A stretch of DNA of 19,697 nucleotides, from positions 1 through 19,697 of the forward strand of contig VBKY01000231.1 in NCBI GenBank assembly GCA_005879255.1, written 5' to 3'. The position numbers and the translations under genes are program-made. Below the pieces are notes generated by a model. That model was not told the DNA's origin. It saw only the letters and a list, made by a program, of their open reading frames with translations, and made no database searches. Position 1 is the first letter of the stretch, and each line of letters opens with the position of its first letter. Positions 4,528 to 19,697 of this stretch are shown one piece after another. The DNA comes from Deltaproteobacteria bacterium. GTDB taxonomy: Bacteria > Desulfobacterota_B > Binatia > UBA9968.

Positions 4528-5082
4528 TCAGCGGCTCTCCGTCGGCAACTTGCGTTGCGCCCAACCCGAGAAACCGTCTTGCAGGACACTGACATTGCGG
4601 TAACCTTTCCCCCGCAGCGCCAAGTAAGAATAGGCTTCGTCGACGCCTCCGGGCGGGCACGCGCAGTAGAGTATGACCCGGCCGGATTTGGGGATTTCCT
4701 GGTGCCTGTTCTGCAATTCCGTAATCGGAATCGAACGGGCACCCGGCAGGCGCGATTTTTGGAAGTCTCCCGCCGGGCGCAGGTCGACAAATAGGATCTT
4801 CTCGCCTCCCTCCAGCATTGTTTTTACTCTCTCAGGTGGAATGGTATCGATGTATTCCTCGTCGTGACCTGCGCCGACTAACGCCGGTCGAAAAAGCAAC
4901 AGAGATAATAAGGTGAGACCTGTAAATCCCGCATTCGCGAAGCTTTGCGAGGGAAATCGGGAGACCCGAAAGGAGAGTTGGAAAGCGCGAGTGGGGCTGT
5001 ATCGCCATGCGCGCTTCCGGTCGCGGCTTACAGCCTTGAAGTGCTCGGCCCCAGGCGGGGTCTTCTTCTCATTGTCCGTCAT
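4528..5082 (-). CDS. Exported rhodanese-like protein (Rhod1) with CxC active-site loop
   Basis: A single rhodanese domain occupies about residues 78-182: LFVDLRPAGDFQKSRLPGAR, the family's D-x-R and LPGA[RK] features, then RVILYCACPPGG with candidate catalytic Cys140 and a second Cys142. The canonical C-x4-R[ST] loop is not preserved. A hydrophobic export segment (about 55-72, GLTLLSLLLFRPALVGAG) lies after an unusual basic extension of about 50 residues that the paralogues lack, so the true start could be internal, although no better start codon is visible. The ATG at 5082 overlaps the AH1 stop (ATGA), indicating coupling. Rhodaneses move sulfane sulfur via a cysteine persulfide; partner and substrate are unknown here. 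Confidence 0.85.
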   Translation of the reverse strand: MTDNEKKTPPGAEHFKAVSRDRKRAWRYSPTRAFQLSFRVSRFPSQSFANAGFTGLTLLSLLLFRPALVGAGHDEEYIDTIPPERVKTMLEGGEKILFVDLRPAGDFQKSRLPGARSIPITELQNRHQEIPKSGRVILYCACPPGGVDEAYSYLALRGKGYRNVSVLQDGFSGWAQRKLPTESR

Positions 5083-6836: not shown

Positions 6837-6856
6837 TATAGTCGCCTTCCTAAGTT

Positions 6857-7933
6857 TTATTCCGCAACTTTGGGCAGTCCCCAAATATCGACCGCAATGC
6901 GCTTCATCAAATCATCTTCCCGGTTACGGCAACCCGTGGCGCAAACAGAAACGTTCGCTCCATTGGCTAACTGGTTGGCAAGGGTTTTCTGCACCAGAAA
7001 AGATGCCCTTCCGGGATCCACCGCGTCTAAGACTTGCTGGCCTTCCGGCGAGGCAAGAAACTCGATCCACAAAAGCGCCGTGTGGCGATTCGGCGCGCGC
7101 GCATAAACCGCTTCCGGCTCGTGAAAGGCCGCCGGCAACGGATTGGGAACCAGCTTCTTGATCGGCGCGCTCGGATTTTGTTTCAAGTAACGTTCCGTGG
7201 CGTGCAGGTAAACGCCGCACATAAAAGCAAACTCACCGGCCGCCAGCTTGGTCAACCCTTGAGTGCTGCCGCGCACGATGACTGGATTGTTTTGTTTTAG
7301 CTTCCGGGCATAATCCAGGGTTTTCTCTTCGCCCCAGCGCGCCGCGAGCGAGGCAATCACGTTGGGCTTGCTGTCAACCGTAAACTTGCCGCTCCACTTG
7401 GGGTCGAAACAACTTTCCCACCCGGTTGGCGTGGGCTCCGATGCGATCCGATTGACGTTGTAGACCATGATGCCAATGATGCTCCCGCTCCATATGACTA
7501 CGCCGGATTCATCGATCATTTCCCGCGGGATGTTGAGATGACCGCCCTCGGCCATTTTCTTGAAATCATAATTTCTGAACAGATTGTGGGAAAAATATTG
7601 ACTCCATAAATTGGGAGCGGGGCGGAACGCGTCGACCACCGCTTTTCCTTCGATCAGATCGTCAAGCTGTTTTTTGAAATCAGCAGGCTTCGACCAGACA
7701 ACTTCTTTGACGAAGGGGTATTTTTTCTTGAAGGCCTCGATAAGATGAGGTGTTGTACTGTCTTCAAAACCAGGCGAGACAACGAGCTTTCCTTCCTTCT
7801 TTGCGTCTTCAAGTATGTGCTCTCTAGTGTCGTGGATCATCCCGCCCTGAGATAAAGCTGGGGAGTCAGAGAACCAAGCGACGAAGAAACAGAGCCAGAA
7901 ACCTAACAAAAGTTTTTTTGTTCTGATCGTCAT
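6857..7933 (-). CDS. Periplasmic ABC-type solute-binding protein, iron/small-molecule PBP type 2 (SBP1)
   Basis: A 358-residue protein with a Sec signal peptide (LLLGFWLCFFVAWFSDSPALSQ, cleavage near residue 29). It has the layout of family-1/type-2 binding proteins: EDAKKEGKLVV near the N-terminus, AFKKKYPF, VYNVNRI in the hinge region, GWESCFDPKWSGKF, and LWIEFLASPEGQQVLD near the C-terminus. The closest well-known relatives are Fe(III)/thiamine/2-aminoethylphosphonate-type binding proteins, but the ligand is not predictable here. A close cysteine pair (C331, C335) sits near the C-terminus. ATG at 7933 has GAGG about 12 bases upstream. It probably heads the SBP1-AH1-Rhod1 operon (20-bp gap to AH1). 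No transporter permease or ATPase gene is nearby. Confidence 0.88.
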   Translation of the reverse strand: MTIRTKKLLLGFWLCFFVAWFSDSPALSQGGMIHDTREHILEDAKKEGKLVVSPGFEDSTTPHLIEAFKKKYPFVKEVVWSKPADFKKQLDDLIEGKAVVDAFRPAPNLWSQYFSHNLFRNYDFKKMAEGGHLNIPREMIDESGVVIWSGSIIGIMVYNVNRIASEPTPTGWESCFDPKWSGKFTVDSKPNVIASLAARWGEEKTLDYARKLKQNNPVIVRGSTQGLTKLAAGEFAFMCGVYLHATERYLKQNPSAPIKKLVPNPLPAAFHEPEAVYARAPNRHTALLWIEFLASPEGQQVLDAVDPGRASFLVQKTLANQLANGANVSVCATGCRNREDDLMKRIAVDIWGLPKVAE

Positions 7934-7967
7934 ATCGCCCTACCTCGCCCGCTTAGCATGGGGCCGT

Positions 7968-7991
7968 TTCAATAATTGAACTGATTCAAAT
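7968..7991. promoter_or_regulatory. Possible operator upstream of SBP1
   Basis: TTCAATAATTGAA (7968-7980) is a perfect 6+6 inverted repeat with a one-base centre. It overlaps a second inverted pair, TTGAA-CTGA-TTCAA (7976-7989). The cluster is about 35 bp upstream of the SBP1 start, where a regulator could act. No regulator gene is in the window and no convincing -10 box was found, so this is a weak call. Confidence 0.25.
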
Positions 7992-8099
7992 CTTCTCATT
8001 GAAGCCAACTTTTCTGAGGCTTGAAATTCTTATACTATCCCGCTTTGGCCAGCGTCAAACGACGCAACGCAGATTTGAGTTACTGCTTGATTCTTTGCT

Positions 8100-8158
8100 C
8101 ATCACGAAGAGCACGAAGGTTTTTTTCCTTCTGCGCCCCTTGCATTCTTTGCGGCTCA
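8100..8158. repeat. Decayed CACGAAG-type palindrome, copy 2
   Basis: The left half (CATCACGAAGAGCACGAAGG, 8100-8119) has two CACGAAG units. A T/C-rich middle is followed by a degenerate right half with CTTGCATTCTTTGCGG (about 8139-8154), closer to a CTTTGCG variant. It lies in the spacer between the CopD fusion and SBP1, and looks like an older or hybrid copy of the repeats at 1354 and 14566. The rest of this 284-bp spacer (7992-8099) shows nothing recognisable. Confidence 0.6.
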
Positions 8159-8168
8159 ATTTTCCGCT

Positions 8169-8205
8169 CCTGTTTCCTCCCCCGCATCGCGGGGGAGGAA
8201 ACAGG
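8169..8205. repeat. GC-rich perfect hairpin (CCTCCCCCGC family, copy 1) after the CopD fusion gene
   Basis: CCTGTTTCCTCCCCCGC (8169-8185) and GCGGGGGAGGAAACAGG (8189-8205) are exact reverse complements: a 17-bp stem with loop ATC. It ends 12 bp from the stop of the CopD-cytochrome gene. On the transcribed strand it is not followed by a T tract, so it is not a standard intrinsic terminator, though it could act as a 3' stabilising structure. Related copies sit at 10941-10989 and 15201-15249. Confidence 0.85.
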
Positions 8206-8217
8206 TGGGGGTGACCG

Positions 8218-10251
8218 CTAATGCACATGGTCATCCGGCGCGGGCGCGGATGGTTTCTCTTGATTCAGGCGGTCGATGTCGCGCAGGAGATTTTCCATTT
8301 TGTCCCAACCAGGACCATCGCGAGGAATCCAGCGGGCGCGTACGTAACCCTGGTGGTCGATGATGAATTCCATGTGCGGCGGCACCGGTGGGTCCGGCAG
8401 GGTGCCCTGCTCGGAAAAACTCCGGCGAAATAAAGCGTAGGTGTCGAACGCTTCTCTGCTTCCGTCGGTCACCAGGGACAAAGTTTTGATCGTGCCTCCG
8501 AGCTGCTCGATTGCGCCGATCTCTTGGGGTACAGCGAGGACCTTCACCTTTCTGTCTTGAAGCTGGCTGTGGATTTTTTCAAGCTCCGAGATGCGCGCCT
8601 TCGAATCCGGCAGCGAAAAGAGCACGAGCATGACGATTTCGCTACCGCGATGGTCCTTCAAAGAACCGCTTTCGTCGGTGAGGGTGCGATAGACAAAATC
8701 AGGGGCGACCAGCCACGGGTCGGGTTCCACCAGCGCGCTCATCTGTCGCGCCCGCTCCGCGTAAGACAACGCACGTACAAAATTGATCATATCCCAGCGC
8801 TCTTCTTCTTCCAGGCTCGCTGCGAAGCCGGGCATCGCAGTGTCTTTAACTCCGTAACTGAGCCACCAGAAGAGATCTCCCGCGGTATGATCTGCGGCGT
8901 GCTTGGCGGTTAAGTCAGCGGGTTTGGGCACGAGACCTTTGCGGTTGGGGCCATCGCCATACCCGCCGACCCCGTGACACGCCGCGCAAGTCTCTTGATA
9001 GATATGCGAGCCATTGGCGACCGAGATCGCGTTGTAAGGAACCGACGGACGGAGATAAGTTTTCGGGTAGGCGTCGATGTAGAGCGCGTCATGGGCAATG
9101 AACGCGCCGGAGGCAAGACTCATCAGGCTCGCTCCCAGCGCAAAATAACGTCGTCGCCATACGGCATAGCAAAGCCCAACAGCGCCGGCGATCGCCAGCC
9201 ATTTTGCATCCGACATCTGCGAGCGCGCTCTTCTGTTGGTATCGACGGCGTTCCAACTCCAGCGAAAAGCGAGAGGCCACTCCGGCGGAATGTGGCGCGC
9301 CGGCGGCGTGACGCTCATTGCTCCGACGATCAGAAGAATGCAACTGCCGAGTATGGCTTCCCGCGTGACGTTGCGCTTGAGCCGAGTCACCAAATCGGCG
9401 AGGCCCGAAACAACGCGCTGAACTGCGAGCGCCAGGATGCGCGGCTTCAGTTGCAGCAGGTTGATGGCGGCAATGCCGATCAATGGCAGCAGCAAAGCGA
9501 GCTTTATGAGCAACAGTTTCCCGTAGTTCGTGCCCAGCAAAGGGGGAACGGCGCCGACGAGACTCCATGCGTTCAAAAATCCGGTAGCAACGAGAATAAG
9601 AACGCTGATAAGGCCGAGGAGAGAAAATCGGCGCGTCGCCGACTTGATTACCGCGGGAGCCCAGGCATCAACGACGCCTCTGATCCAGCCAAGGAATAAG
9701 GCAAACACGACGAGCCCGCCAAGCCAAACACCGGCGGCAAGCAGATGCAATGCATCCGCCGTCAATTGGATCATCAGCCAAGTCCCTTCGCCGGCCGCTG
9801 CATGGCCCGAAAGGGCAGGCGTCATAATCAATATTGCGGCAAGGATCAAGGAGACACTACGTGAAGTATCCGACTCGGGATCGCGGCGGAAACCAAGCAC
9901 GGCACCGATCAACAGGATCAACAGCGCGCGGGTGGTCCACACCGCGCCGTACCTGGTTCCAGTTAAAACTCCCGCGATAATTTCAGGATGCAAAGCGTCA
10001 GCGAGCGAGACACCGGCGACGGAGACAATCTGCAGCCAGAAGGCGAGTAGCCCCGACAGGAAAATGATCAGAAGAGTCCATTGAGCGAGCCGGAGCAGGC
10101 GCCGATTGAAAGCGGCGAATTCAGGCGAGCCTTCGCCGCCGACGCTTCTCAGCGCGGGGCGCGATACGAGAAAATAAAACCCCAGCGAGCCAAGAAGAAG
10201 CGCCGATGAGGCCAGGTGAATAAATCTGATAAGGGCCGAGGCAGTGGTCAC
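8218..10251 (-). CDS. Three-part fusion: CopD-like membrane domain, cytochrome c, thioredoxin-like domain
   Basis: A 677-residue protein. Residues about 5-320 are a CopD/copper-export membrane domain with about eight hydrophobic helices and conserved-type histidines (H12, H150, H169). A further hydrophobic segment (350-388) leads to a cytochrome c domain with one haem motif CAACH (422-426) and a likely axial Met in TAMPGF (M473). Residues about 528-660 resemble a redoxin fold (HRGSEIVMLVLFSLPDSKAR, VKVLAVPQ, MEFIIDHQGYVRARW), but the position where TlpA/SCO proteins have CxxC reads SLPDS, so it appears redox-inactive. The tail ends HVH, a possible metal site. CopD normally works with CopC in copper traffic across the inner membrane. 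Start is GTG (10249-10251) with no clear ribosome site. It follows Rhod2 by 108 bp; nothing notable was seen in that spacer. Confidence 0.85.
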   Translation of the reverse strand: MTTASALIRFIHLASSALLLGSLGFYFLVSRPALRSVGGEGSPEFAAFNRRLLRLAQWTLLIIFLSGLLAFWLQIVSVAGVSLADALHPEIIAGVLTGTRYGAVWTTRALLILLIGAVLGFRRDPESDTSRSVSLILAAILIMTPALSGHAAAGEGTWLMIQLTADALHLLAAGVWLGGLVVFALFLGWIRGVVDAWAPAVIKSATRRFSLLGLISVLILVATGFLNAWSLVGAVPPLLGTNYGKLLLIKLALLLPLIGIAAINLLQLKPRILALAVQRVVSGLADLVTRLKRNVTREAILGSCILLIVGAMSVTPPARHIPPEWPLAFRWSWNAVDTNRRARSQMSDAKWLAIAGAVGLCYAVWRRRYFALGASLMSLASGAFIAHDALYIDAYPKTYLRPSVPYNAISVANGSHIYQETCAACHGVGGYGDGPNRKGLVPKPADLTAKHAADHTAGDLFWWLSYGVKDTAMPGFAASLEEEERWDMINFVRALSYAERARQMSALVEPDPWLVAPDFVYRTLTDESGSLKDHRGSEIVMLVLFSLPDSKARISELEKIHSQLQDRKVKVLAVPQEIGAIEQLGGTIKTLSLVTDGSREAFDTYALFRRSFSEQGTLPDPPVPPHMEFIIDHQGYVRARWIPRDGPGWDKMENLLRDIDRLNQEKPSAPAPDDHVH

Positions 10252-10359
10252 TGGAGTGGGAAAAGGGGATGGGGCATTTTATTTGCGAACAGGAAATCAA
10301 ACTTCACGGAGATCTCAATTGCGAAGCGCGGTGAATTTGTGTGGGTCAACGGCGCTCAT

Positions 10360-10812
10360 TCAGTTGGTCTTTGCGCCGGCCTCCGTGGGAAATTTACGTT
10401 GCACCCAGCCTTTGATCCCGTCGGGCATGATCGCGATGTTGCGATAGCCGTGATCATCTTTCAGCACCTGGTAGGCGTCTTGGATAAGAACATTTTGCGG
10501 ACAATCGCAGTAGAGAATCACCCGGCCGGCGCGCGGAATAACGCGAAGGTTTTTGTCCAGTTCATTGATGGGAATGGAACGGGCCCCCGGAAGTCTTTTT
10601 TCCCGGTATTCCTTGGTCGGCCGAAGATCGATGATGGTGACAGTTTCTTTATTGTCGAGGTAATACTTCAATCGCTCCGGCGTGACAGTATCGACAACAT
10701 CTTCCTGGTCATGGGCGGCGTCGCTTGCCGTCGGCCAAGCTATGCAAAGGCTAAGCAGCGCAAGTCCGACAAGCCAAAAATAGCAAACTTGGTGGCGAGT
10801 GTGTTCGATCAT
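10360..10812 (-). CDS. Exported rhodanese-like protein (Rhod2) with CxC active-site loop
   Basis: A 150-residue protein with a hydrophobic export segment (residues about 10-30, CYFWLVGLALLSLCIAWPTA). Its single rhodanese domain contains IIDLRPTKEYREKRLPGARS and RVILYCDCPQ, giving candidate catalytic Cys102 plus Cys104. The ATG at 10812 is supported by AGGAGGT (10822-10828 on the complementary strand) about 9 bases upstream, the best ribosome site among the rhodanese genes. It shares with Rhod1 and Rhod3 the VKMLL/LKYYLDNKE-type N-terminal helix and the C-terminal QRKFPTE block. It is separated from AH2 upstream by 189 bp containing three repeat motifs. Downstream is the CopD-cytochrome fusion. 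Confidence 0.88.
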   Translation of the reverse strand: MIEHTRHQVCYFWLVGLALLSLCIAWPTASDAAHDQEDVVDTVTPERLKYYLDNKETVTIIDLRPTKEYREKRLPGARSIPINELDKNLRVIPRAGRVILYCDCPQNVLIQDAYQVLKDDHGYRNIAIMPDGIKGWVQRKFPTEAGAKTN

Positions 10813-10834
10813 GCCGAATAGACCTCCTGGTTCT

Positions 10835-10857
10835 AGGGCGCAACATTTTGCGCCCCT
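10835..10857. repeat. Short hairpin GGGCGCAA ... TTGCGCCCC
   Basis: AGGGCGCAA (10835-10843) pairs with TTGCGCCCCT (10848-10857) across a short loop. It resembles the hairpin nested at 1409-1430 (GGGCGCGAT ... ATCGCGCCC), so the two may be copies of one dispersed element. It lies just upstream of the Rhod2 ribosome-binding site, so in the transcript it could affect Rhod2 translation. Confidence 0.55.
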
Positions 10858-10890
10858 ACATTTATTCTTTGGAGCCTTTTGCGCCTTTGA

Positions 10891-10923
10891 GTTTAAAGTT
10901 CAAAACGTTCAAGCTGTTCAATC
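10891..10923. repeat. 33-bp dispersed repeat (TTTAAAGTTCAAAAC type), copy 1
   Basis: This stretch matches the reverse complement of 14134-14166 at 30 of 33 positions (counted by eye). Both copies run straight into a pyrimidine-rich, GC-hairpin-like sequence on the same side, so together they look like one composite element. It lies between AH2 and Rhod2. Confidence 0.75.
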
Positions 10924-10940
10924 GCTGTGCTCCGTTCAAT

Positions 10941-10989
10941 CCCCCTCCTTCATCCTCCCCCGCGATGCGGGGGAGGACAGAGGTGGGGG
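10941..10989. repeat. GC-rich hairpin (CCTCCCCCGC family, copy 2) after AH2
   Basis: An 11-bp perfect stem, TCCTCCCCCGC (10953-10963) and GCGGGGGAGGA (10967-10977), with loop GAT, extends outward as an imperfect stem (CCCCCTCCTTCA against AGAGGTGGGGG). It lies 12-60 bp beyond the AH2 stop. No T tract follows on the transcribed strand. Confidence 0.85.
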
Positions 10990-11001
10990 CGAATAGAATC
11001 A

Positions 11002-12765
11002 CTAAAAATTACTCGCCTGGTGCACGATCTTGCCGCCGACCATCGTGAGGAGAGGCTTGATTTTCCTTATTTCCCTTTCCGGCACGCTGAAGTAATCGTG
11101 ATCCAAGATCAAAAGATCGGCCAATTTGCCGCGTTCCAGCGAACCGAGAAGATCCTGGCGTCGCACGTATTCAGCCGCCCAATTGGTAGACATCTTGAGC
11201 GCGCGGACACGGTCGATGCGCTCGCGGCCGTTGTAGACTTTTCCTTCGACTTCGCGATTGACCAGAACGTCGATGTAATGAAAGACGGTTCCTACTTTAA
11301 AGATTTCGTTGTCATCGAGCTCTAGAACGGTTTTCACATTGGCGTCCAGCAGGCTCTTCACCGGCGCGACCCAGCTCAGGTACTTCTCGCCATAGTCCCT
11401 CAGCACCCTGGGACTCTCCTCAATATATTTCGGCGAGCAGCTCATCGTAATGTTGAGCTTCTGCAGGCGCGGGATCTGGTCCGGGCGCGGGTTCATGGTG
11501 CAGTGATCGATGGCATGCCCTTTCGCCTTGATTTGATCCAATGAATAGCCGGCCCGCGCGCTGCCCTTTTCGATCGCGTCCAATGTTAAGTCGAGGGCCT
11601 TATCTCCCGCGGTGTGGGTTCCGGCCCATCTCAAGCCTGAGGCCACCGCATCTTCAATAAAGTCCGTATAGCCTTCGTTAAGAATCTCTCGATCCTTAGT
11701 CTCTTTTGGAATTGCCGGCGGCTCGAGGGTCGTCAATATGCCTGGGTAAGATGCGTCGACGCCCCTCATGCTGGCGGCGACAAACCATAAATAATCGGTG
11801 CCGTAACCGTGCACTCCGAACATCTCAGGAACCACCTGGGCGGGAGTGCCGACGCCCGGCGTGTAGCCGAAGCGGATGCCGATCTCACCTCTTTGATCTA
11901 GGAGCTGATAAGCCGCGAGAATTTTCAACGAGCGCAGGTTGCTCGACCAGGTGGTGATACCATAACTTGCCCAACGAAGATTCTCAGCTTTGTAAATCTC
12001 CGCCAATTTTTCGACGCTCGGGATCAAGTGATCCGATAATACCATGCGGTTGATGGTGTTCGAGGAGAAGCCGTCATCGCGCATTAGATTAGGTTCCATG
12101 CGACCGTGCCAACCGGCGCGGATGAGTTCCTGTGCTTTGCCATTGGTGATCGAAGAGGTCCTGGTACGCAGATAGACAGGATTATTCGGCGCCGCCTTGT
12201 CCAGCTCGACTCGCGTGACGATCTGACTACGCATCGCAGCTTGCACCGCGTCCATCGGTTTGCCGTCTTTCGAAATCGCCTCTCTTGGCAAATCCAGAGC
12301 GATCCACTCGCCCGCTTTGCGTTTGGCGGCTTCTTGACGGACGGCCTCCAGAGTTTTTTGCTTGACGCTCTCCCAGGTGTCGTTCGACTGCGCCCTGATG
12401 CGAATTCGCGGCGAAGCGTCGCCCAGCGAATCCATCGCGTAGTCGAACAGATGAGAATGGGTATCGATAATCCCCGGCACCACGGTGCGTCCTTTGGCAT
12501 CGATCATCCTTGTTTGCGGACCGCGAAGGGAAAGAATCTGCTTATTCGTGCCCGACAACAGAATCTTTCCATCTCTAATTGCCAGAGCTTCGACGACGGT
12601 CCCGACATTCGCAGAGTTGCTCTTGTCATCCATCGTGTAGACCTTGCCGTTGTGCACGATGGTGTCCGGATAGCTAATGACTTCCGGCGGCACGGTCTCA
12701 GCAGCCCACGCGGGCAAAGCCGCAAAGACAAAGACAAGGAATGACCGCATGAAACATTCTTTCAT
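11002..12765 (-). CDS. Secreted amidohydrolase, YtcJ-like / amidohydrolase family 3 (AH2)
   Basis: A 587-residue protein with a signal peptide (MRSFLVFVFAALPAWAAE region, cleavage near residue 22). Metal motif HSH at H103/H105 (IDTHSHLFDY), then H384 (GTHTAGDKA), H421 (AIDHC) and D484/D485 (LELDDNE). The C-terminal end has GKLADLLILDHDYF and VGGKIVHQ. Closest to AH3 in this window: the stretch EIFKVGTVFHYIDVLVNRE is nearly identical there. ATG at 12765 is chosen because GGGAGG (12770-12775) precedes it, though spacing is only 4 bases; ATG at 12750 is a possible alternative. It begins 46 bp after the SBP2 stop, indicating an SBP2-AH2 operon. Predicted periplasmic; the substrate is unknown. Confidence 0.9.
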   Translation of the reverse strand: MKECFMRSFLVFVFAALPAWAAETVPPEVISYPDTIVHNGKVYTMDDKSNSANVGTVVEALAIRDGKILLSGTNKQILSLRGPQTRMIDAKGRTVVPGIIDTHSHLFDYAMDSLGDASPRIRIRAQSNDTWESVKQKTLEAVRQEAAKRKAGEWIALDLPREAISKDGKPMDAVQAAMRSQIVTRVELDKAAPNNPVYLRTRTSSITNGKAQELIRAGWHGRMEPNLMRDDGFSSNTINRMVLSDHLIPSVEKLAEIYKAENLRWASYGITTWSSNLRSLKILAAYQLLDQRGEIGIRFGYTPGVGTPAQVVPEMFGVHGYGTDYLWFVAASMRGVDASYPGILTTLEPPAIPKETKDREILNEGYTDFIEDAVASGLRWAGTHTAGDKALDLTLDAIEKGSARAGYSLDQIKAKGHAIDHCTMNPRPDQIPRLQKLNITMSCSPKYIEESPRVLRDYGEKYLSWVAPVKSLLDANVKTVLELDDNEIFKVGTVFHYIDVLVNREVEGKVYNGRERIDRVRALKMSTNWAAEYVRRQDLLGSLERGKLADLLILDHDYFSVPEREIRKIKPLLTMVGGKIVHQASNF

Positions 12766-12811
12766 GAAACCTCCCAAATGCACGTCTTGTTTGTTATGTT
12801 CTCTCGCCAAC

Positions 12812-13927
12812 TCACTTTTCTGCCCTGGGAAAACCGTACGCGTCGACCACCATCTTCATCCATTTTGGCGTATTCTGAAACGTTCGGTGGTCGTTGACCG
12901 ACACCTTTTTGCCTTTTAGGAGGCGGGCCACTTCTCCATCGGTGTACACGCTGGATTTAATCGGCTCGTAGTCGTCGATAACTTTTTGACCTTCGCGGCT
13001 CGCCATATGCTCGATGAAAAGGAGGGCTGCATGGGGATGAACGGCGCTCTTAACAACGAACTGGTTTTCGCGCAGATAGACCGGCGCCGGCTCGATGATT
13101 TTGCATACGAGGGACTTCGTCGGGTCTTTTCTCGAGGCTTCGACGCAGCTGTTATAAAAGGTCATCTGGTGGACCGGCTGTTCGCCGGTCGCGATGGCGC
13201 CCATGGCGCGGGCATTGCCGCGGATCCAAACCGGTTGCTGATCCTTGATCTGGCGAGCGTATTTGACGACCCATTCCTCGCCCATTCCTGCCATCAGAGA
13301 TGCCATGCACTGCGGCCGCACGTCGGCGACAAATTTTCGCCCCTTGAGTTCAGGTCTGAGAAAGTCCTCCCATTTGTCAGGGACGGCATCTGGCGCAAGA
13401 CGATTTTTATTGTAAGCAATCGAGCAAATGCTGCTCGCCACGGCGACTACGTTGCGGTAATCGGGATCGACCATCTTGGGATTGATTTCAAGCACGCCCT
13501 GCTGCGCCATGCCCAGGAGATCGAACTTCATAGCGTGGGCGGCGTTCTCAACGTAAAATTCCGAGCTCGCCTCAGAGGTGTCGAAATCCTTCACGGTGCC
13601 CGCTTTTAATTCAAGCAAAAAGCGCTGCAAGGCCTCGGGACCGCCGATTTCGTCCATGCGGATTTTGATGAACGGGTATTTCTTGGAAAAGGATTCCATC
13701 ATGGGCTTGAAGGTTCCTCCATCCAACGAGGAGATTACCCGCAGCGTCCCTTCTTGTTTGGCCTTAGCGACGATTTCGTCGCGGCCTGTAAGAAAAAGAA
13801 AACCTTTGCTGTCTGCAGCCTTTTTAACCTCGAGAAGGGCGGAGCTCACTGAGGCGGCATCGACGGCGGAATCCAACATCCAGCAATTTACGACCAGACA
13901 AACGGCTAGGAAAAAACGCATTCCCAT
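12812..13927 (-). CDS. Periplasmic ABC-type solute-binding protein (SBP2)
   Basis: A 371-residue protein with a signal peptide (FFLAVCLVVNCWMLDSAVDA, cleavage near residue 24). It has the same type-2 binding-protein layout as SBP1: IVAKAKQEGTLRVIS, FSKKYPFIKIR, IAYNKNRLAPD, WEDFLRPELKGRKF, ALLFIEHMASREGQKVIDD, and a matching end (MKMVVDAYGFPR against SBP1 MKRIAVDIWGLPK). About 25 extra residues lie between signal and core. ATG at 13927 has GGAGGT (13933-13938) 5 bases upstream; a second ATG two codons on is possible. A plausible promoter lies 20-48 bp upstream. It sits directly before AH2, the same order as SBP1-AH1. The ligand is unknown and no permease is nearby. Confidence 0.88.
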   Translation of the reverse strand: MGMRFFLAVCLVVNCWMLDSAVDAASVSSALLEVKKAADSKGFLFLTGRDEIVAKAKQEGTLRVISSLDGGTFKPMMESFSKKYPFIKIRMDEIGGPEALQRFLLELKAGTVKDFDTSEASSEFYVENAAHAMKFDLLGMAQQGVLEINPKMVDPDYRNVVAVASSICSIAYNKNRLAPDAVPDKWEDFLRPELKGRKFVADVRPQCMASLMAGMGEEWVVKYARQIKDQQPVWIRGNARAMGAIATGEQPVHQMTFYNSCVEASRKDPTKSLVCKIIEPAPVYLRENQFVVKSAVHPHAALLFIEHMASREGQKVIDDYEPIKSSVYTDGEVARLLKGKKVSVNDHRTFQNTPKWMKMVVDAYGFPRAEK

Positions 13928-13946
13928 TACGTACCTCCGTATCCTG

Positions 13947-13975
13947 CCTATATTAATCTTCTAACCAAAGTTCAA
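13947..13975 (-). promoter_or_regulatory. Putative sigma70-type promoter of the SBP2-AH2 operon
   Basis: On the minus strand, TTGAAC (13970-13975) and TATAGG (13947-13952) are separated by 17 bases. The -10 box lies 19 bp before the SBP2 start, with the ribosome site between. Each box matches consensus at four of six positions, so this is a moderate call. The repeat-filled spacer between copC and SBP2 makes an independent promoter here plausible. Confidence 0.4.
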
Positions 13976-13991
13976 CCGCATTCTGTATCGA

Positions 13992-14079
13992 AGTGTCATC
14001 CTGAGGCGATAGCCGAAGGATCTAGTCTTGGTGAGCGGCAGGGAAATGCGAGATTCTTCGCTGCGCTCAGAATGACATT
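13992..14079. repeat. TGTCATTCTGAG-type imperfect palindrome
   Basis: The left arm (13992-14023) reads GTGTCATCCTGAGG ... CCGAAGGATCT. The right arm (14050-14079) reads GAGATTCTTCGCTGCGCTCA then GAATGACATT, which is its imperfect reverse complement. I recognise this motif as a common dispersed repeat in environmental bacterial genomes (recollection, not a search result). It occupies the copC-SBP2 spacer. Confidence 0.85.
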
Positions 14080-14110
14080 TGTGCATGTTTGGCGATTGCG
14101 ACACTGCCTC

Positions 14111-14166
14111 GGCGGGGAAGAGAAGAGGCGGGGGATTGAACGACTTGAAGGTTTTGAACTTTAAAC
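14111..14166. repeat. Composite dispersed repeat, copy 2 (inverted relative to copy 1)
   Basis: Positions 14134-14166 match the reverse complement of 10891-10923 at 30 of 33 positions. The adjoining GGCGGGGAAGAGAAGAGGCG stretch (14111-14130) corresponds to the GC-hairpin side of the copy near AH2, although here only one arm seems to remain. It lies 30 bp beyond the copC stop. Confidence 0.7.
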
Positions 14167-14196
14167 TTATACCAAGGCAGACCGCGAACATTCCGG

Positions 14197-14733
14197 CTAG
14201 TTCTTCGCTTCGCGGATGGTGAACGGAAAACTTTGCTCGACCACGTGCCCGTCGACTGACAGGACGCGAAACTTGACGATGTATTTGCCGGCGGGAAGTT
14301 TCTTGACGCCGATGGCAAGTCGCTTCGGATCTTCGGCCAACACGTGAGCATCGTCCGAATCAACGCGCTTTCCATCCGGATCAAGCACGGAAGCGAAAGA
14401 ATACTTGGGTTCCAGACGCTCGTTGAACCAGAGTTGAATCTTTCCAGGAGAGTTGAAAAGCGTAGCGCGGCTCGCCGGTACGGATTTCACAAGGTAAGCG
14501 TGGGCGAAAGCGACGGCGGGAGTGAGCAGGGAAAGACCAATCAGTGCTATCCCACTGGTTTTTCTCACCACGAAGGTCACGAAGCGCACGAAGGAAAGAA
14601 ATTCAAATGAATCAATTTCCGAATTCTTCGTGTCCTTCGTGCCCTTCGTGGTGCAATGTTTGTTTCGATTTTGGTTGCGACTCGGCCGTGCTGAGATTTT
14701 CGTGGTGAGTATGACAGGGATTCGGGGGTTCAT
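14197..14733 (-). CDS. CopC-like periplasmic copper-binding protein with a repeat inserted in its N-terminal coding region
   Basis: The core is classic CopC: after a signal peptide (SGIALIGLSLLTPAVAFA) comes HAYLVKSVPASRATL, whose first residue (H78) would be the mature N-terminal copper ligand, then IQLWFNERLEP, DPDGKRV, and FRVLSVDGHVVEQSFPFTI with D161 and H163. CopC binds Cu(II) in the periplasm and partners CopD. The chosen ATG (14733) overlaps the Rhod3 stop as ATGA, giving 178 residues. Residues about 27-56 are encoded by an 88-bp CACGAAG palindrome (14566-14653), so the protein has an odd 55-residue leader. A GTG at 14566-14568, on the repeat's edge, would give a normal 22-residue signal peptide but has no visible ribosome site. 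Function depends on which start is used. Confidence 0.82.
   Translation of the reverse strand: MNPRIPVILTTKISARPSRNQNRNKHCTTKGTKDTKNSEIDSFEFLSFVRFVTFVVRKTSGIALIGLSLLTPAVAFAHAYLVKSVPASRATLFNSPGKIQLWFNERLEPKYSFASVLDPDGKRVDSDDAHVLAEDPKRLAIGVKKLPAGKYIVKFRVLSVDGHVVEQSFPFTIREAKN
14566..14653. repeat. CACGAAG-type palindrome, copy 3, inside the copC-like reading frame
   Basis: The outer 11 bases match exactly as an inverted repeat (CACCACGAAGG at 14566-14576 against CCTTCGTGGTG at 14643-14653). Each arm contains three CACGAAG units; the centre is AT-rich. This is the best preserved copy in the window, and the only one within a coding frame. Its translation in the copC frame gives TTKGTKDTKN ... FLSFVRFVTFVV, unlike any CopC sequence I know. 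Confidence 0.9.
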
Positions 14734-15155
14734 CGTTTGCCGCTCTCGACGGGAAATTTTCTTTTTATCCACTCGTCAAAACCATCATCTATAACCGAGA
14801 CATTCGCGTAGTCGTTGTCGCGCAATAGAAAATAGGCATAGGAGTCGTCCCCGGGACGGCACGAGCAGTAGAGGATCACGCGCCCGGTTTTCGGAATCTC
14901 GGTTAAGCGTTTTTCCAGTTCGGCAACGGGAATCGAGCGCGCTCCCGGCAAACGTTTTTGTTGAAACTCCTTGGGCGTGCGCAAATCGACAAAGAAGATT
15001 TTTTCCTTGTTGTCGAGAAGGAACTTCACTCGCTCCATTGAGATCGTCTGAACCGGCTCTTCACCGTGCCCCGCGTAAAGCGGCATCGGACTGTACGAAA
15101 GCATGGCTAGCAGGAGTGCCAGTGCAGCGGTATAGAGATATGTGTTTTGGGCCAC
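14730..15155 (-). CDS. Exported rhodanese-like protein (Rhod3) with CxC active-site loop
   Basis: A 141-residue protein with a clear signal peptide (YLYTAALALLLAMLSYSPMPLYAG, residues about 6-29). Its rhodanese domain contains FFVDLRTPKEFQQKRLPGAR and RVILYCSCRPGDD, with candidate catalytic Cys97 plus Cys99, then DDGFDEWIKRKFPVESG at the end. Its start is GTG (15153-15155) without an obvious ribosome site. It lies 120 bp after AH3, in a spacer containing a GC hairpin, and its stop overlaps the copC-like ATG by 4 bp. Of the three rhodaneses it is the most compact and has the clearest export signal. Coupling with CopC suggests a joint periplasmic role, possibly involving sulfur and copper, but this is inference. 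Confidence 0.88.
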   Translation of the reverse strand: MAQNTYLYTAALALLLAMLSYSPMPLYAGHGEEPVQTISMERVKFLLDNKEKIFFVDLRTPKEFQQKRLPGARSIPVAELEKRLTEIPKTGRVILYCSCRPGDDSYAYFLLRDNDYANVSVIDDGFDEWIKRKFPVESGKR

Positions 15156-15200
15156 GATTTGATTGGTGCGCGTAGCGCATCCTGCGAAGACTCGAGTACC

Positions 15201-15249
15201 CCTACCTCTTTCCTCCCCGCGACGCGGGGGAGGATGAAGGAGGGGGCGG
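15201..15249. repeat. GC-rich hairpin (CCTCCCCCGC family, copy 3) after AH3
   Basis: TCCTCCCCGC (15212-15221) pairs with GCGGGGGAGGA (15225-15235) with one bulged G and loop GAC; flanks ACCTCT and ATGAAGGAGGGGG extend it imperfectly. The flank order is reversed compared with copy 2, as if inserted the other way round. It lies 27-75 bp beyond the AH3 stop, before Rhod3. Confidence 0.8.
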
Positions 15250-15275
15250 TGAATATTGCCACTACTTCGGGATCA

Positions 15276-17036
15276 TCAGAAATTGGGTGCCTGAAAAACG
15301 ATCTTGCCGCCGACCATGGTTAGTACGGGTTTGACCTTTCTGATTTCTCTCTCTGGAACGGTAAAGTAATCGCTGTTCAGGACCAGCAGATCGGCGTACT
15401 TGCCGCGCTCGAGCGTGCCGAGAACGTTCTGTCTGTAGACATACTCAGCGGCCCAGCTGGTAGCGGTCTTGAGCGCCAAGACGCGATCCACTCGTTCCTT
15501 GCCGGCGTAGACCTTGCCTTCCACCTCACGGTTGACCATCGTGTCAAGGTAGTGGAAGACCGTGCCGACCTTGAAGATATCGCGGTCATCGGTTTCGAAA
15601 ACCGCTTTCACACCGGCATCGATGATCGACTTCATCGGCGCGATCCAGCCGAGATATTGTTCGCCGTAATCGCGCAAAACCTCCGGCGAGTCTTCGACAT
15701 ACTTCGGCGCGCAGCTCATGGTAATGTTGAGATTCTTTAAACGAGGAATTTGATCCGGGCGCGGGTTGAGCGCGCAGTGGTCCATCGCATGACCCGCGGC
15801 ACGAATCTGCTCGGGTGTGAGCTTCGCCTTGGCGCTGCCCTTTTCGATCGCATCGAGCATCAAGTCCAAGGTCTTGTCGCCCGCGGTGTGTGTCCCGGCG
15901 ATGCGTAACCCGGATGCGACGGCATTTTCAATAAATTCCGAAAACCCCTCGTTATAAACTTCGCGGTCTTTGACATCCTTCGCTGCGCTGGTGATCGACG
16001 TCAAAATTCCTGGATAAGATTGATCCATGCCGCGCATGCTGGCGCCGGCAAACCAAACATAATCGGTGCCGTAACCGCTCACGCCGTACATCTCCGGCAT
16101 CAACTGAATCGGCGTGCCCAAGCTCGGCGTGTACGCGAGCCGGATGCCGATATCGCCCTTCTTGTCGAGCAGTTGGTACGCCGCCAGCGATTTATGCGAA
16201 CGAAACGAGCTTGACCAAGTGGTCACGCCGTAACTCGCCCAGCGGAAGTTCTCGTCTTTGTAATATTTCGCCAGCTCCTCAAGGCTACCGACCAAGAAGT
16301 CCGAGCCGATGATGCGGTTGAGTGTGTTCGAAGCGAAACCGTCTTCCCGGATAAGATCCGGCTCCATCGGCCCGGCCCAGATGCTTCGGACCAAATCCAT
16401 CGCTTGGCCATTGATGATCGACGTCGTGCGCACTTTGAGATAGACGGGATTATTCGGCGCAATCGCGTCCAACTCCTTGCGATTGACGATCATGCCCCGA
16501 CGCGCCGCGACGATGCCGTCGACGTTTTTGCCGTCCGCGCCGAGTCCTTCACGAGGCAGATCGAGCGCGACCCACTCGCCGGGTTTTTTCTTCGCAACCG
16601 TGTCCTTAACGATCTGAAGAGTCTGTTTTTTAATGCTCTCCCAGCTGTCTCCCGGCTTGGAGCGCACACGAGTGCGCACGGCGGTTTGCTCCTGCGCATC
16701 GAGAGCGTAATCGAACAGATGCGAGTGGGTGTCAATGATGCCGGGTACCACCGTGCGGCCTTTTAAGTCGACCACCTTTGTCTGCGCACCTCGCAGCGCG
16801 AGCATCTGCTGACTAGTGCCCGTGGCTAAGATTTTCCCGTCGCGAATCGCCAGTGCTTGGCTTACCGTTCCGGGATTGGACGATCGATTCTTGTCGTCCA
16901 TCGTGGCGATCTTGCCGTTATGTAAGATCGTGTCCGGATAGTTCACTAGCAGCGGCGGCACGTTCTGCCCCAGCGCCGGGCCACATAGCAAGGCCAAACT
17001 CAAAAGAAGAAGTAGAATTTTCACCGAATGTCTCAT
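15276..17036 (-). CDS. Secreted amidohydrolase, YtcJ-like / amidohydrolase family 3 (AH3)
   Basis: A 586-residue protein with a signal peptide (VKILLLLLSLALLCGPALGQ, residues 5-24). Metal motif H104/H106 (IDTHSHLFDY), H383 (GTHTAGDKT), H420 (AMDHC) and D483/D484 (FETDDRD). The C-terminal domain ends with GKYADLLVLNSDYF and VGGKIVFQAPNF. It is close to AH2 along its whole length, including the shared insertion GTVSQALAIRDGKIL / GTVVEALAIRDGKIL. ATG at 17036 is strongly supported by AAGGAGG about 8 bases upstream; longer in-frame starts upstream have no such site. It lies 193 bp after AH4, with a possible promoter in that spacer, and precedes Rhod3 and copC. Predicted periplasmic; the substrate is unknown. 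Confidence 0.9.
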   Translation of the reverse strand: MRHSVKILLLLLSLALLCGPALGQNVPPLLVNYPDTILHNGKIATMDDKNRSSNPGTVSQALAIRDGKILATGTSQQMLALRGAQTKVVDLKGRTVVPGIIDTHSHLFDYALDAQEQTAVRTRVRSKPGDSWESIKKQTLQIVKDTVAKKKPGEWVALDLPREGLGADGKNVDGIVAARRGMIVNRKELDAIAPNNPVYLKVRTTSIINGQAMDLVRSIWAGPMEPDLIREDGFASNTLNRIIGSDFLVGSLEELAKYYKDENFRWASYGVTTWSSSFRSHKSLAAYQLLDKKGDIGIRLAYTPSLGTPIQLMPEMYGVSGYGTDYVWFAGASMRGMDQSYPGILTSITSAAKDVKDREVYNEGFSEFIENAVASGLRIAGTHTAGDKTLDLMLDAIEKGSAKAKLTPEQIRAAGHAMDHCALNPRPDQIPRLKNLNITMSCAPKYVEDSPEVLRDYGEQYLGWIAPMKSIIDAGVKAVFETDDRDIFKVGTVFHYLDTMVNREVEGKVYAGKERVDRVLALKTATSWAAEYVYRQNVLGTLERGKYADLLVLNSDYFTVPEREIRKVKPVLTMVGGKIVFQAPNF

Positions 17037-17166
17037 AGCATCCTCCTTTTTTGTTTCCGTCGGTTTCTCAGTCGCTCCACTACAATTACTTCCGCGCCGC
17101 AACGGATTGGCTCCCATATAACACATCCTCTTGGTTAGAAAGAAGATGCTGCGCTTGCCGGTCTCA

Positions 17167-17196
17167 CTAATATCGCTTTAACAGCACGCGGTTCAA
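17167..17196 (-). promoter_or_regulatory. Possible promoter before AH3
   Basis: On the minus strand, TTGAAC (17191-17196) and TATTAG (17167-17172) are spaced by 18 bases, about 130 bp upstream of the AH3 start. The same TTGAAC -35 hexamer appears in the putative SBP2 promoter. The match is modest and the long leader is unexplained. No repeat element was seen in this 193-bp spacer. Confidence 0.25.
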
Positions 17197-17229
17197 CGGC
17201 GGTGATTTAATACCACCGAGGCAGCTTTA

Positions 17230-19032
17230 TCACTCCGTGCCGGTTTCCCTCGCCGCCTTAGCCGGTGTGGCGTTTTTTGCGACTCCGCGAATGGCGGGCA
17301 GTTCATAGGCGATCCGACCGCCGACCATGGTGAGCAGCACCTGGGTCTTGCCTATTTCATTTTCGGGGATCGTCATGTAGTCGCGGTCCAAAACCATCAG
17401 GTCCGCCCATTTGCCGGGCTCGATGGAGCCGAGAACATTTTCGCGCAGCACATACTCCGCCGCCCAGCGCGTAAACATCTTGAGCGCTGTAACCCGATCG
17501 ATTTTTTCCTGGAGATTCCAGATCCGGCCGGCAGCTTCGCGCGTGACCAAGATCTGGGTGTAATAAAAAGCGTTCTTGTCCGCCTTCAGACGTGAGTCTA
17601 ACTCGATGACAGGTTTTACGCCGGCATCGATCATACTTTTGATCGGCACATTCCACTTGAGATACTCTTCTCCGTAGTCGCGCAGAATACGCGGAGCGGC
17701 TTCTTCTATATATTTTGGCGCGCAACTTACGATCATGCCCAGTTTCTTGAGGCGCTGGATCTGATCGGGCCGCGGATTGATCGTGCAGTGGTCCGTGCTG
17801 TGACGCTTTTGGCGGATTACATCCGCACTCAATCCAGCCTTCTTGCTGGCGTCTTCGATCGCGTCCATCAGATCGTCCAATGCCCGATCTCCGGCGATGT
17901 GCAGGCCCGTTACGCGATTGCCGGATCGGACGATCGCCTCGATTCCTTGTCTTTTGAACTCTTGCGGACCGGCAAAGCATTGCTCGCGCTCCTTGATCGG
18001 TCCACGCGCTTGGATCGAGGTACAGACGTTAGGATAGCTTCCATCGATGTTGCCGGGACTTGCGCCAATGGCCCAAAGAAAATCGGTCCCATGCCCTTGG
18101 ATAGCGCCCAGACGTTCGTAGAATCCGGCCGCGTTGGGAAAGGAAGTAAAACCCTGACCGTGAGTGTAACCGAGTCGCACGGTCATTCTTCCTTCTCTAT
18201 CAAGCTCGGAAAGAGCTTCGAAAGCTTGCAGGGGCTGAATCGATGACGACCATGTGGTAATGCCAAATTTCGCTAGATCGTTGAACGCCTTAAAATAGCT
18301 TTCTTTGAGCAGTTCTTTTCTTCCGTCCATCATCAGATCGGCCTGAATCACGCGGATCACCTCGGCGCGAAAACGTCCGGTAATTTGACCGTCTTTATCG
18401 ACCAATCCGGGAAGCCGAAGCAACTCACTCTCAAAGCCGTACTTCTTCTTCAACAGCTCGAGTCCTCGTGAAGTCATCAGGCCTCTCGTGCCCAGATTGA
18501 TAAACACGAGCTTATCCGCGGCGATTTTATCCAGATCCCGGTAAGTGTGTTTGAGCCAAAAATCATTGGCCACGTCGATTGGCTCGAGACGGATCATGAG
18601 CCATTCGTCCGGCTTGGCTTTCGCCGCCAGCGATTCGACTCCCTTTAAAAGTTCTTGAAAAGTATTTCCATTGACTGTTTTCATGCGCAGTTCGGGCAGC
18701 GAATCGGAAGCATATGCATCAAGACTGTACTCGTGGGGATGCGAATGGGTGTCGATGAAACCGGGAAGAACCGTTCTTCCTCTTAAATCGATCCTGACTG
18801 TCTTGGGCCCCGCGAGCCGGAGGATTTCCGCATTTGTCCCGACGGCGAGAAGTTTTCCCTGCCTTACGGCGAGCGCTTGTGCGATCGTCGCGCTATCGTT
18901 CATGGTGACGATTTTGCCGTTATGCAGAATCGTTTCCGGATAATTGATTAGCTCCGGCGGCACGCTTTGCGCCGCCGCTCGACCAGTGAAGAAGCCCGAA
19001 AATAAGAACACTAAGATTGCAATCCGACGCAT
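17230..19032 (-). CDS. Secreted amidohydrolase, YtcJ-like / amidohydrolase family 3 (AH4)
   Basis: A 600-residue protein with a signal peptide (RRIAILVFLFSGFFTGRAAAQ, residues 2-22). Metal motif H96/H98 (IDTHSHPHEY), H378 (GLHIAGDRA), H415 (TDHC) and D479 (IELDSR). Compared with AH1-AH3, the second His motif reads LHIAGD instead of THxAGD, and the Asp is single rather than a DD pair. The C-terminal tail (RGVAKNATPAKAARETGTE) is longer, and shared only with AH5. ATG at 19032 is supported by GGAGG about 8 bases upstream. It lies 130 bp after the AH5 stop and 193 bp before AH3, with neither SBP nor rhodanese immediately attached. It is very similar to AH5 over the overlap available. Confidence 0.9.
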   Translation of the reverse strand: MRRIAILVFLFSGFFTGRAAAQSVPPELINYPETILHNGKIVTMNDSATIAQALAVRQGKLLAVGTNAEILRLAGPKTVRIDLRGRTVLPGFIDTHSHPHEYSLDAYASDSLPELRMKTVNGNTFQELLKGVESLAAKAKPDEWLMIRLEPIDVANDFWLKHTYRDLDKIAADKLVFINLGTRGLMTSRGLELLKKKYGFESELLRLPGLVDKDGQITGRFRAEVIRVIQADLMMDGRKELLKESYFKAFNDLAKFGITTWSSSIQPLQAFEALSELDREGRMTVRLGYTHGQGFTSFPNAAGFYERLGAIQGHGTDFLWAIGASPGNIDGSYPNVCTSIQARGPIKEREQCFAGPQEFKRQGIEAIVRSGNRVTGLHIAGDRALDDLMDAIEDASKKAGLSADVIRQKRHSTDHCTINPRPDQIQRLKKLGMIVSCAPKYIEEAAPRILRDYGEEYLKWNVPIKSMIDAGVKPVIELDSRLKADKNAFYYTQILVTREAAGRIWNLQEKIDRVTALKMFTRWAAEYVLRENVLGSIEPGKWADLMVLDRDYMTIPENEIGKTQVLLTMVGGRIAYELPAIRGVAKNATPAKAARETGTE

Positions 19033-19060
19033 AATCAATTCCTCCGTCCAACTCAGCATC

Positions 19061-19080
19061 GAGGAAGGTCGAGGAAGGTC
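19061..19080. repeat. Two tandem copies of GAGGAAGGTC
   Basis: Two exact adjacent 10-base copies lie in the 130-bp AH5-AH4 spacer, 29 bp upstream of the AH4 start. This is probably a small replication-slippage product. The rest of that spacer shows nothing recognisable. Confidence 0.6.
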
Positions 19081-19162
19081 GTCCTGTCAGCTCAGTCAGC
19101 GCGTTCTGCCGTTTTCTAATCTTTGTCGCTCTGTTCTCTATCCCATCGCCGTCTTTATGTTG

Positions 19163-19697
19163 CTATTCTTCCGTGCCGGTCTCCTTGCCAGCTTTGGCCG
19201 GCACCGTACTCTTATCTATGCCCCGAACCGCGGGCATTTCATGGATGATCTTGCCGCCGACCATCGTCAGCAACACCTGGATTTTACTCATCTCATTCTC
19301 GGGAATGGTCATGTAGTCGCGATCTAAAACGATAAGATCGGCCCATTTCCCGGGCTCGATGGAGCCGAGAACATTCTCGCGCATCATGTACTCCGCCGCC
19401 CAGCGAGTGAACATCTTGAGAGCCGTCATCCGGTCGACTTTTTCGCTCAAGTTCCAGACTTTTCCCGCCGCCTCGCGGGTGAGGAGAAGCTGCATGTAGT
19501 AAAACGCGTTCTTCCTCGGAGTGAGATGAACATCCAGTTCCATTACCGTTTTGACCCCGGCGGCAATGAGACTTTTTACCGGCACGTTCCACTTCAAATA
19601 CTCCTCACCGTAGTCACGCACGATGCGCGGTGAGACGTTTTCGATGTATTTCGGCGCGCAGCTGGCGAACATGTTGAGCTTTTTCATACGCTCGTAC
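19163..19697 (-). CDS. Secreted-type amidohydrolase, YtcJ-like, C-terminal part only (AH5)
   Basis: The frame is open from the right edge to a stop at 19163, giving about 178 residues of the C-terminal part. It begins at YERMKKLNMFASCAPKYIEN, which aligns with IQRLKKLGMIVSCAPKYIEE in AH4 (about residue 425 onward). The candidate metal Asp is in MELDVHL. Near identity with AH4 continues through NAFYYMQLLLTREAAGKVWN, MFTRWAAEYMMRENVLGSIEP, GKWADLIVLDRDYMTIPENE, and the tail PAKAGKETGTE. The HxH and other His motifs and the presumed signal peptide lie outside the window. The Phe-Ala in MFASCAPKY replaces Ile-Val in AH4. It looks like a recent tandem duplicate of AH4. Confidence 0.88.
   Translation of the reverse strand, partial: YERMKKLNMFASCAPKYIENVSPRIVRDYGEEYLKWNVPVKSLIAAGVKTVMELDVHLTPRKNAFYYMQLLLTREAAGKVWNLSEKVDRMTALKMFTRWAAEYMMRENVLGSIEPGKWADLIVLDRDYMTIPENEMSKIQVLLTMVGGKIIHEMPAVRGIDKSTVPAKAGKETGTEE

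What the first reader, a model, noticed from the sequence alone, without database searches (positions are those of the whole stretch)
14566..14733. A dispersed palindrome sits in-frame inside the copC-like gene, ahead of its signal peptide
The copC-like ATG is coupled to the Rhod3 stop (ATGA), yet the signal peptide begins about 55 codons later, after an 88-bp CACGAAG palindrome that stays in frame. Its edge also supplies a GTG exactly where a normal 22-residue signal peptide would start. Either the protein has a repeat-encoded leader, or the repeat created a new start and uncoupled copC from Rhod3. This would be a visible case of a palindromic repeat reshaping the start of an exported protein.
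Basis: partly seen in the sequence, partly recalled or inferred. Interest (0 to 1): 0.7.

Follow-up and report, generated by a model that had tools for sequence, protein, structure and literature searches.

The report
Mobile palindrome split a signal peptide
A short palindromic repeat, scattered widely in related bacteria, appears to have landed inside the export signal at the front of a copper-binding protein gene, so that the signal now begins some 55 codons later at the repeat's edge, while the finished protein stays the same.

Summary
copC (minus strand) has an ATG overlapping the rhodanese stop (ATGA, 14733-14730). An 88-bp CACGAAG palindrome (14566-14653) stays in frame, and its edge gives GTG (14568), where a 22-residue signal peptide begins.

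In relatives the palindrome is dispersed and extragenic (1 of 61 clusters inside coding DNA in a G001 sample).

Relatives give a before-and-after series. L002 and L018 lack the repeat; their signal peptide starts at the coupled ATG. Eight of 120 homologs start MKARL without an extension; P0002, with the window's leader and an identical mature protein, starts MKARLPVIL and then repeat. So the ATG end is most likely the old signal-peptide start, cut off by the insertion (inferred). P0001 and P0002 carry the palindrome flipped: 30 of 30 residues match the inverted DNA, 15 of 30 the window's. P0003 lacks one arm; P0005 has another leader.

Which start is used is not shown. Conservation favours GTG; neither start has a Shine-Dalgarno site and GTG folds into a stem. 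In-frame palindromes, and a repeat forming part of a signal peptide, are already in print.

The parts
14730..15155 (-). rhodanese-like gene upstream of copC; its stop overlaps the copC ATG as ATGA
   Evidence: PF00581 E 2.1e-14
14707..14733 (-). codons 1-9 (MNPRIPVIL) from the coupled ATG: probable remnant of the old signal-peptide start; codon 9 (CTC) already lies in the element's edge
   Evidence: P0002 (same leader, identical mature protein) reads MKARLPVIL here; 8 of 120 listed homologs without extension start MKARL; P0121 MKARLPFIYLFLLAPSVAFA-His
14564..14709 (.). inserted composite element, 146 bp, exact 11-bp inverted ends CTCACCACGAA / TTCGTGGTGAG; its palindrome-then-hairpin order reads on the + strand
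14566..14653 (.). 88-bp CACGAAG palindrome (arms 14566-14593, 14626-14653), in frame with copC
   Evidence: family 459 arm sites in G001, control 0
14670..14693 (+). second dispersed motif TTTGGTTGCGACTCGGCCGTGCTG (hairpin module)
   Evidence: 1 match in window, 0 expected; 130 sites in G001 with up to 2 mismatches against 2 for the control
14566..14571 (-). GTGGTG at the palindrome edge; candidate start codons (14571, 14568)
14503..14568 (-). 22-residue signal peptide VRKTSGIALIGLSLLTPAVAFA read from GTG
   Evidence: no signal-peptide predictor was available
14197..14502 (-). mature CopC, 101 residues beginning with His, and stop
   Evidence: PF04234; aligned from its first residue to chains 5icu and 9c14, which begin with His

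Best explanation
A dispersed, normally extragenic, composite palindromic element (146 bp) inserted into the signal-peptide region of copC. It left the first 8-9 codons of the old signal peptide at the rhodanese-coupled ATG. The working signal peptide now lies downstream and most likely starts at the GTG of the element's edge, with a basic n-region next to that edge, then an h-region and a fixed AxA-His cleavage site. The stretch between ATG and GTG is repeat DNA that keeps turning over (flips, loss of an arm, other repeats) because the mature copper-binding protein is not affected. Shown: identity and dispersal of the element, repeat-free relatives, both palindrome orientations, constancy of the mature protein. 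Inferred: insertion inside the old signal peptide, GTG as the start used, origin of the new n-region from the repeat's exit. If ribosomes start at the ATG, cleavage at the same site could still give the same mature protein.
For: Element family: 459, 258, 18 and 12 arm sites in four relatives, reversed control 0 in all; strict edge in 15 of 148 genomes of G001's class, 150 in G001; 1 of 61 and 0 of 17 clusters inside coding segments in the G001 and G128 samples. Repeat-free state: L002 (TAATG overlap with a Pfam rhodanese) and L018 (TGATG). Old start: MKARL. Flip: 30 of 30 residues for P0001 and P0002 against 15 of 30 unflipped. Mature domain 101 of 101 identical in P0002, P0003 and P0005, 100 of 101 in P0001, while leaders differ. 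Residues 1-27 against 56-178, window versus P0002: 5 of 27 and 0 of 123 changed, P 1.4e-4. Leaders are repeat DNA: 15 of 32 long leaders hit dispersed places, mature controls 32 of 32 hit one place.
Against: Neither start has a Shine-Dalgarno-like site (ATG -3.0, GTG -3.7 kcal/mol; background median -2.9), while several other genes of the window do. The GTG is paired in the predicted RNA stem (-69 kcal/mol, z -4.36). Reading out of the element, long frames are not commoner in the GTG frame (11 of 94) than in the other two (15, 18), nor in G128 (9, 9, 10 of 32), so the family is no general start donor. Window versus P0001 gives only 2 of 27 against 1 of 123 changes, P 0.08. The DNA of P0001-P0137 was not seen, so GTG codons and exact insertion ends in homologs are unverified. 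No target duplication is visible.
Confidence: 0.68

Rival explanations
1. Translation starts at the coupled ATG, runs through the element (opening its hairpin) and makes a 178-residue precursor with a repeat-encoded leader; the internal signal sequence is recognised and cut at the same site.
For: The frame is open from ATG to the mature protein; ATGA coupling is kept; the GTG is buried in a stem that a translating ribosome would open. All four leaders of this type keep the frame (window, P0001, P0002, P0003).
Against: The leader changes while the mature protein does not; conservation across homologs begins at V(x)K(I/T). An open frame is weak evidence: 51 of 84 palindrome readings from G001 and G128 are open in the GTG frame anyway, and leaders out of frame would not be listed as such by a gene caller.
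Confidence: 0.25
2. The element matters as a regulatory hairpin (terminator, RNA processing site or attenuator) that sets copC expression apart from the rhodanese, and the coding effect is a by-product.
For: Strong hairpin; L001 carries a different repeat arrangement between the same two genes with the frame broken.
Against: No bias to gene ends in relatives: 53 3' and 41 5' gene ends within 250 bp in G001, 17 and 16 in G128. No Rfam match.
Confidence: 0.15
3. An assembly artefact placed or turned the repeat.
For: The homologs are metagenomic and their DNA was not seen.
Against: The same leader occurs in clusters from ENA and JGI with 23, 2 and 8 member sequences; the flip carries the arm mismatches with it, so it would need an overlap of only about 11 bases (inference).
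Confidence: 0.03

Closest known systems
[quoted passage not shown] passages of PMC2759123, and PMC2229807)
   Same: Small dispersed palindromic repeat fused in frame at the front of an exported protein, contributing hydrophobic residues to a predicted signal peptide.
   Different: Here the protein is a CopC with relatives in the repeat-free, split, flipped and replaced states; the repeat sequence and host group differ.
Rickettsia palindromic elements (RPE) (passages of PMC10969869, and PMC2229807)
   Same: About 100-150 bp, palindromic, open in frame, inside a conserved gene with the product apparently kept.
   Different: RPEs are reported inside genes for nearly half of the copies; here 1 of 61 and 0 of 17 clusters lie inside coding DNA. 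The insertion is in the removed signal peptide, not the mature protein.
REP/BIME elements moved by RAYT (Y1) transposases (recalled)
   Same: Extragenic, palindromic, high copy, patchy between relatives.
   Different: Longer units; only 1 of 19 Y1_Tnp loci has an arm site nearby.
Intragenic invertons (recalled; searches gave 0 and 4 papers, seen as listings only)
   Same: Inverted-repeat-bounded DNA inside a gene, seen in both orientations.
   Different: The flip leaves the downstream protein unchanged; no recombinase was sought or found.

Membership tests
RPE-like in-frame palindromic element | palindromic, dispersed, open reading frame through the element | tested here: met
   window frame open; 51 of 84 readings open in relatives
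RPE-like in-frame palindromic element | frequent insertion inside genes | tested here: not met
   1 of 61 and 0 of 17 clusters inside coding segments (home-made caller)
RPE-like in-frame palindromic element | sequence kinship with RPE families | not tested
   no RPE sequences were compared
MITE | terminal inverted repeats | tested here: met
   exact 11-bp CTCACCACGAA / TTCGTGGTGAG
MITE | target-site duplication | tested here: inconclusive
   flanks GTCATA and AAAAAC show none by eye; no empty site of a close allele in DNA
MITE | cognate transposase with the same ends | not tested
   only Y1_Tnp was sought
REP/RAYT system | Y1 (RAYT) transposase beside the repeat | tested here: not met
   1 of 19 Y1_Tnp loci in four relatives has an arm site; loci were 1.6-3.3 kb
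Inverton | both orientations of one locus in a population | tested here: met
   protein level only: P0001 and P0002 against window and P0003
Inverton | site-specific recombinase and effect on expression | not tested
   -
CopC | CopC domain with mature N-terminal His | tested here: met
   PF04234; alignment from His1 to 5icu and 9c14. That His1 binds copper is recalled

The most novel reading that the evidence does not exclude
The palindrome is a portable signal-peptide kit. In its GTG frame one arm reads as a basic stretch (PRRxRRxRR or TTKxTKxTK) and the other as a hydrophobic stretch (FVxFVxFVV) ending in GTGGTG, so an insertion at the start of an exported protein can supply start codon, n-region and h-region at once. 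In CopC homologs P0021, P0028 and P0105 the repeat arm is the only candidate h-region. In the L092 ORF the arm (VLFVFFVV) aligns with the ordinary h-region (VLLIFAIL) of a TctC-like relative. The front of copC would then be a place where dispersed palindromes repeatedly rebuild a signal peptide.
Probability: 0.35. Interest if true: 0.72.

Novelty: new variant of a known kind. Interest (0 to 1): 0.52.

Why it matters
A repeat-derived part of a signal peptide has been proposed before from a locus whose relatives had unrelated signal sequences (PMC2759123, passages). Here one short exported protein, with an unchanged mature domain and a fixed first residue, is seen with a plain signal peptide, with one apparently split by a repeat, with the repeat flipped, with an arm lost and with other repeats in its place. 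That makes it possible to test how mobile palindromes move start codons and rebuild export signals without harming the protein. It also warns that gene callers will annotate repeat DNA as protein N-termini.

Tried and rejected
Tried without result: viral contigs for P0002 (no relative). A protein search with residues 16-62 of P0001 found only P0001 and P0002, so no other protein of 0.55-1.75 times that length shares this leader at that sensitivity. A phylum-level search for plain copC found only G001 (1 of 395, at E 1e-20). Plasmids: one short match. Rfam: none. Paper searches for motif letters: one search listed 15 of 68 papers, none relevant by title; one search found 0. One search (Binatota and palindrome) found 2, not relevant by title and abstract start.

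Rejected: the family as a general start donor; RAYT-driven REP; terminator role as sole explanation. Not claimed: the number of independent insertions, because only 6 of 127 inner branches of the tree are well supported.

Caveats on counts: one search used 135 of 141 rows; L001_x was lost because I translated it from a wrong position, and P0073, P0076, P0111, P0115 and P0129 were dropped by my rule of at least 14 residues before the mature His (list). The arm and edge labels and the 22 n-region 4-mers were picked by eye for a VV(x)KI look, so the P of 4e-9 is partly circular. The 42 elements include two shifted duplicates. The 40 G001 stretches were chosen because they hold the motifs, so densities are not genome-wide. 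The caller is a home-made hexamer scorer. One search covers the 120 listed of 2329 hits.

Full report
WHAT IS THERE. On the minus strand a rhodanese gene (15155-14730) is followed by copC, whose ATG overlaps the rhodanese stop as ATGA. Pfam gives Rhodanese and CopC. The CopC domain begins at residue 78 of the 178-residue frame. The mature protein begins with His, as do the aligned chains 5icu and 9c14. The signal peptide that fits is VRKTSGIALIGLSLLTPAVAFA, 22 residues from the GTG at 14568, the last codon of an 88-bp palindrome (14566-14653).

THE HOST. No whole genome is held for the window. The nearest loci are MAGs titled Deltaproteobacteria bacterium, and one close homolog, P0008, is named Candidatus Binatia by its source. 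The window's own taxon is inference.

THE REPEAT. In relative G001, arms are two or three CACGAAGnn units, outer edges TTCACCACGAA...TTCGTGGTGAA, often with a TTCGGA...TCCGAA loop; 35 paired copies were found in 387 kb of motif-bearing stretches. Of 59 outer edges read, GTGGTG is followed by A in 55. Arm sites: G001 459, G128 258, G124 18, G002 12, reversed control 0 in all four. The strict edge occurs in 15 of 148 genomes of the class, 150 times in G001 and 105 in G127. A second dispersed hairpin, GGTTGCGGCTnnGCCGCGCTA, has 130 sites in G001 (control 2). In the G001 sample 8 of its 24 sites are followed by TTCGTGGTG within 16 bases and 9 of 24 are preceded by it within 45. In the window the unit is palindrome plus this hairpin, 14564-14709, 146 bp, with exact 11-bp inverted ends. 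Its order reads on the + strand, opposite to copC.

WHERE IT NORMALLY LIES. With a simple coding caller, 1 of 61 clusters in the G001 sample and 0 of 17 in the G128 sample fall inside coding segments, though about 80% of that DNA is called coding. The copC case is unusual. Reading outward from 94 edges in G001, frames of 60 or more codons are not commoner in the GTG frame (11) than in the other two (15, 18); in G128 the counts are 9, 9 and 10 of 32. So the family is not a general donor of starts. Y1 transposase genes have an arm site nearby in 1 of 19 loci.

BEFORE THE INSERTION. In L002 a Pfam rhodanese ends in TAATG and the signal peptide starts at once. In L018 a short upstream frame that resembles the rhodanese end by eye, without a Pfam hit, ends in TGATG in the same way. 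L001 has a different repeat arrangement between the two genes, with the frame broken; copC can start at an ATG or at a GTG edge in frame with it. Of 120 listed homologs, 65 have 17-24 residues before the mature His and 41 have exactly 22; 28 have 36 or more. Eight of the 120 begin MKARL with no extension; P0121 begins MKARLPFIYLFLLAPSVAFA-His.

AFTER THE INSERTION. P0002 has the window's leader but begins MKARLPVIL, then TTKISARP; P0005 begins MKARLPGIL and then other sequence. Because plain signal peptides of this family can start MKARL, the ATG end of the window's frame (MNPRIPVIL) is most simply the old signal-peptide start, cut off at codon 8-9. This is an inference through P0002. The mature domain is identical (101 of 101) in the window, P0002, P0003 (15 codons of one arm missing) and P0005 (another leader and signal peptide), and 100 of 101 in P0001.

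THE FLIP. Across residues 28-57, P0001 and P0002 each match the window in 15 of 30 residues, and match the window with its 88 bp inverted in 30 of 30. Window and P0003 carry one orientation, P0001 and P0002 the other. The exchange takes the arm mismatches along, so it reaches the outer edges. P0008, P0009, P0016, P0017 and P0041 carry a WLR..FVV stretch that reads like the hairpin module in the same orientation as copC. Whether that is an inversion of the same insertion or a separate one cannot be told without their DNA.

THE LEADERS ARE REPEAT DNA. Of 32 long leaders (window included), 15 hit places in the G001 and G128 samples, from 1 to 19 places each; 17 hit none. Each of 32 mature-domain controls hits one place. 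Between window and P0002, residues 1-27 differ at 5 and residues 56-178 at 0 (P 1.4e-4); against P0001 the counts are 2 and 1 (P 0.08).

WHICH START. For GTG: conservation begins at V(x)K(I/T) and the 22-residue length fits. The residues after VV resemble exit peptides of the repeat (22 against 72 sequences, P 4e-9; the 22 were picked by eye for that look, so this is partly circular). An exit reading FVVNKINWT exists in G001, and 7 near-copies of its DNA lie in G001 but none in G128, G002 or G124. Against GTG: no Shine-Dalgarno-like site and pairing in a strong stem. For ATG: coupling and an open frame, though 51 of 84 palindrome readings are open anyway. Either start could give the same mature protein.

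REPEAT ARM AS SIGNAL SEQUENCE. In the GTG frame one arm is basic and the other hydrophobic (median best 9-residue Kyte-Doolittle value 2.6 over 84 readings). In P0021 and P0028 the stretch after the element scores 0.2 and 0.7, so the arm (2.3 in P0028) is the only candidate h-region. P0105 is weaker (1.7), and a plain signal peptide scores 3.7. The L092 ORF (6693-5467) has no Pfam hit but is 31% identical (E 5e-46) to the L114 ORF, a weak TctC match below its cut-off. In that alignment the repeat arm VLFVFFVV of L092 lies against the ordinary h-region VLLIFAIL of L114. No signal-peptide predictor was available.

KNOWN KIND. [quoted passage not shown] I saw passages of PMC10969869, PMC2759123 and PMC2229807. 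Intragenic invertons are recalled; two searches gave 0 and 4 papers, seen as listings. The searches made showed no account of this repeat or of this before-and-after series; most subscription papers are not in that library.

Noticed in passing
window 4528-19687, minus strand: Tandem paralogs: five amidohydrolase (Amidohydro_3-type) frames, the last cut by the window's edge and not scanned, with three rhodanese genes and two solute-binding proteins between them.
   Followed up: partly
window 1355-1458 and 8102-8118: Other CACGAAG sites of the same family; in the first, another hairpin (GGGCGCGATCAATCGCGCCC) sits in the loop of the palindrome.
   Followed up: partly
L097 14481-14639; L068 6692-6954; L080 1796-1933: In G001 other dispersed hairpins are nested inside the loops of CACGAAG palindromes, as if loops were preferred landing sites.
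   Followed up: no
window 8164-8214, 10942-10992, 15199-15249: A third dispersed GC-rich palindrome (CCTCCCCCGC...GCGGGGGAGG) in three copies between genes.
   Followed up: no
NC_020157.1 169637-169669: A 34-base match (94%) to the palindrome on an Anabaena cylindrica plasmid; similar arms may exist far outside this group.
   Followed up: no
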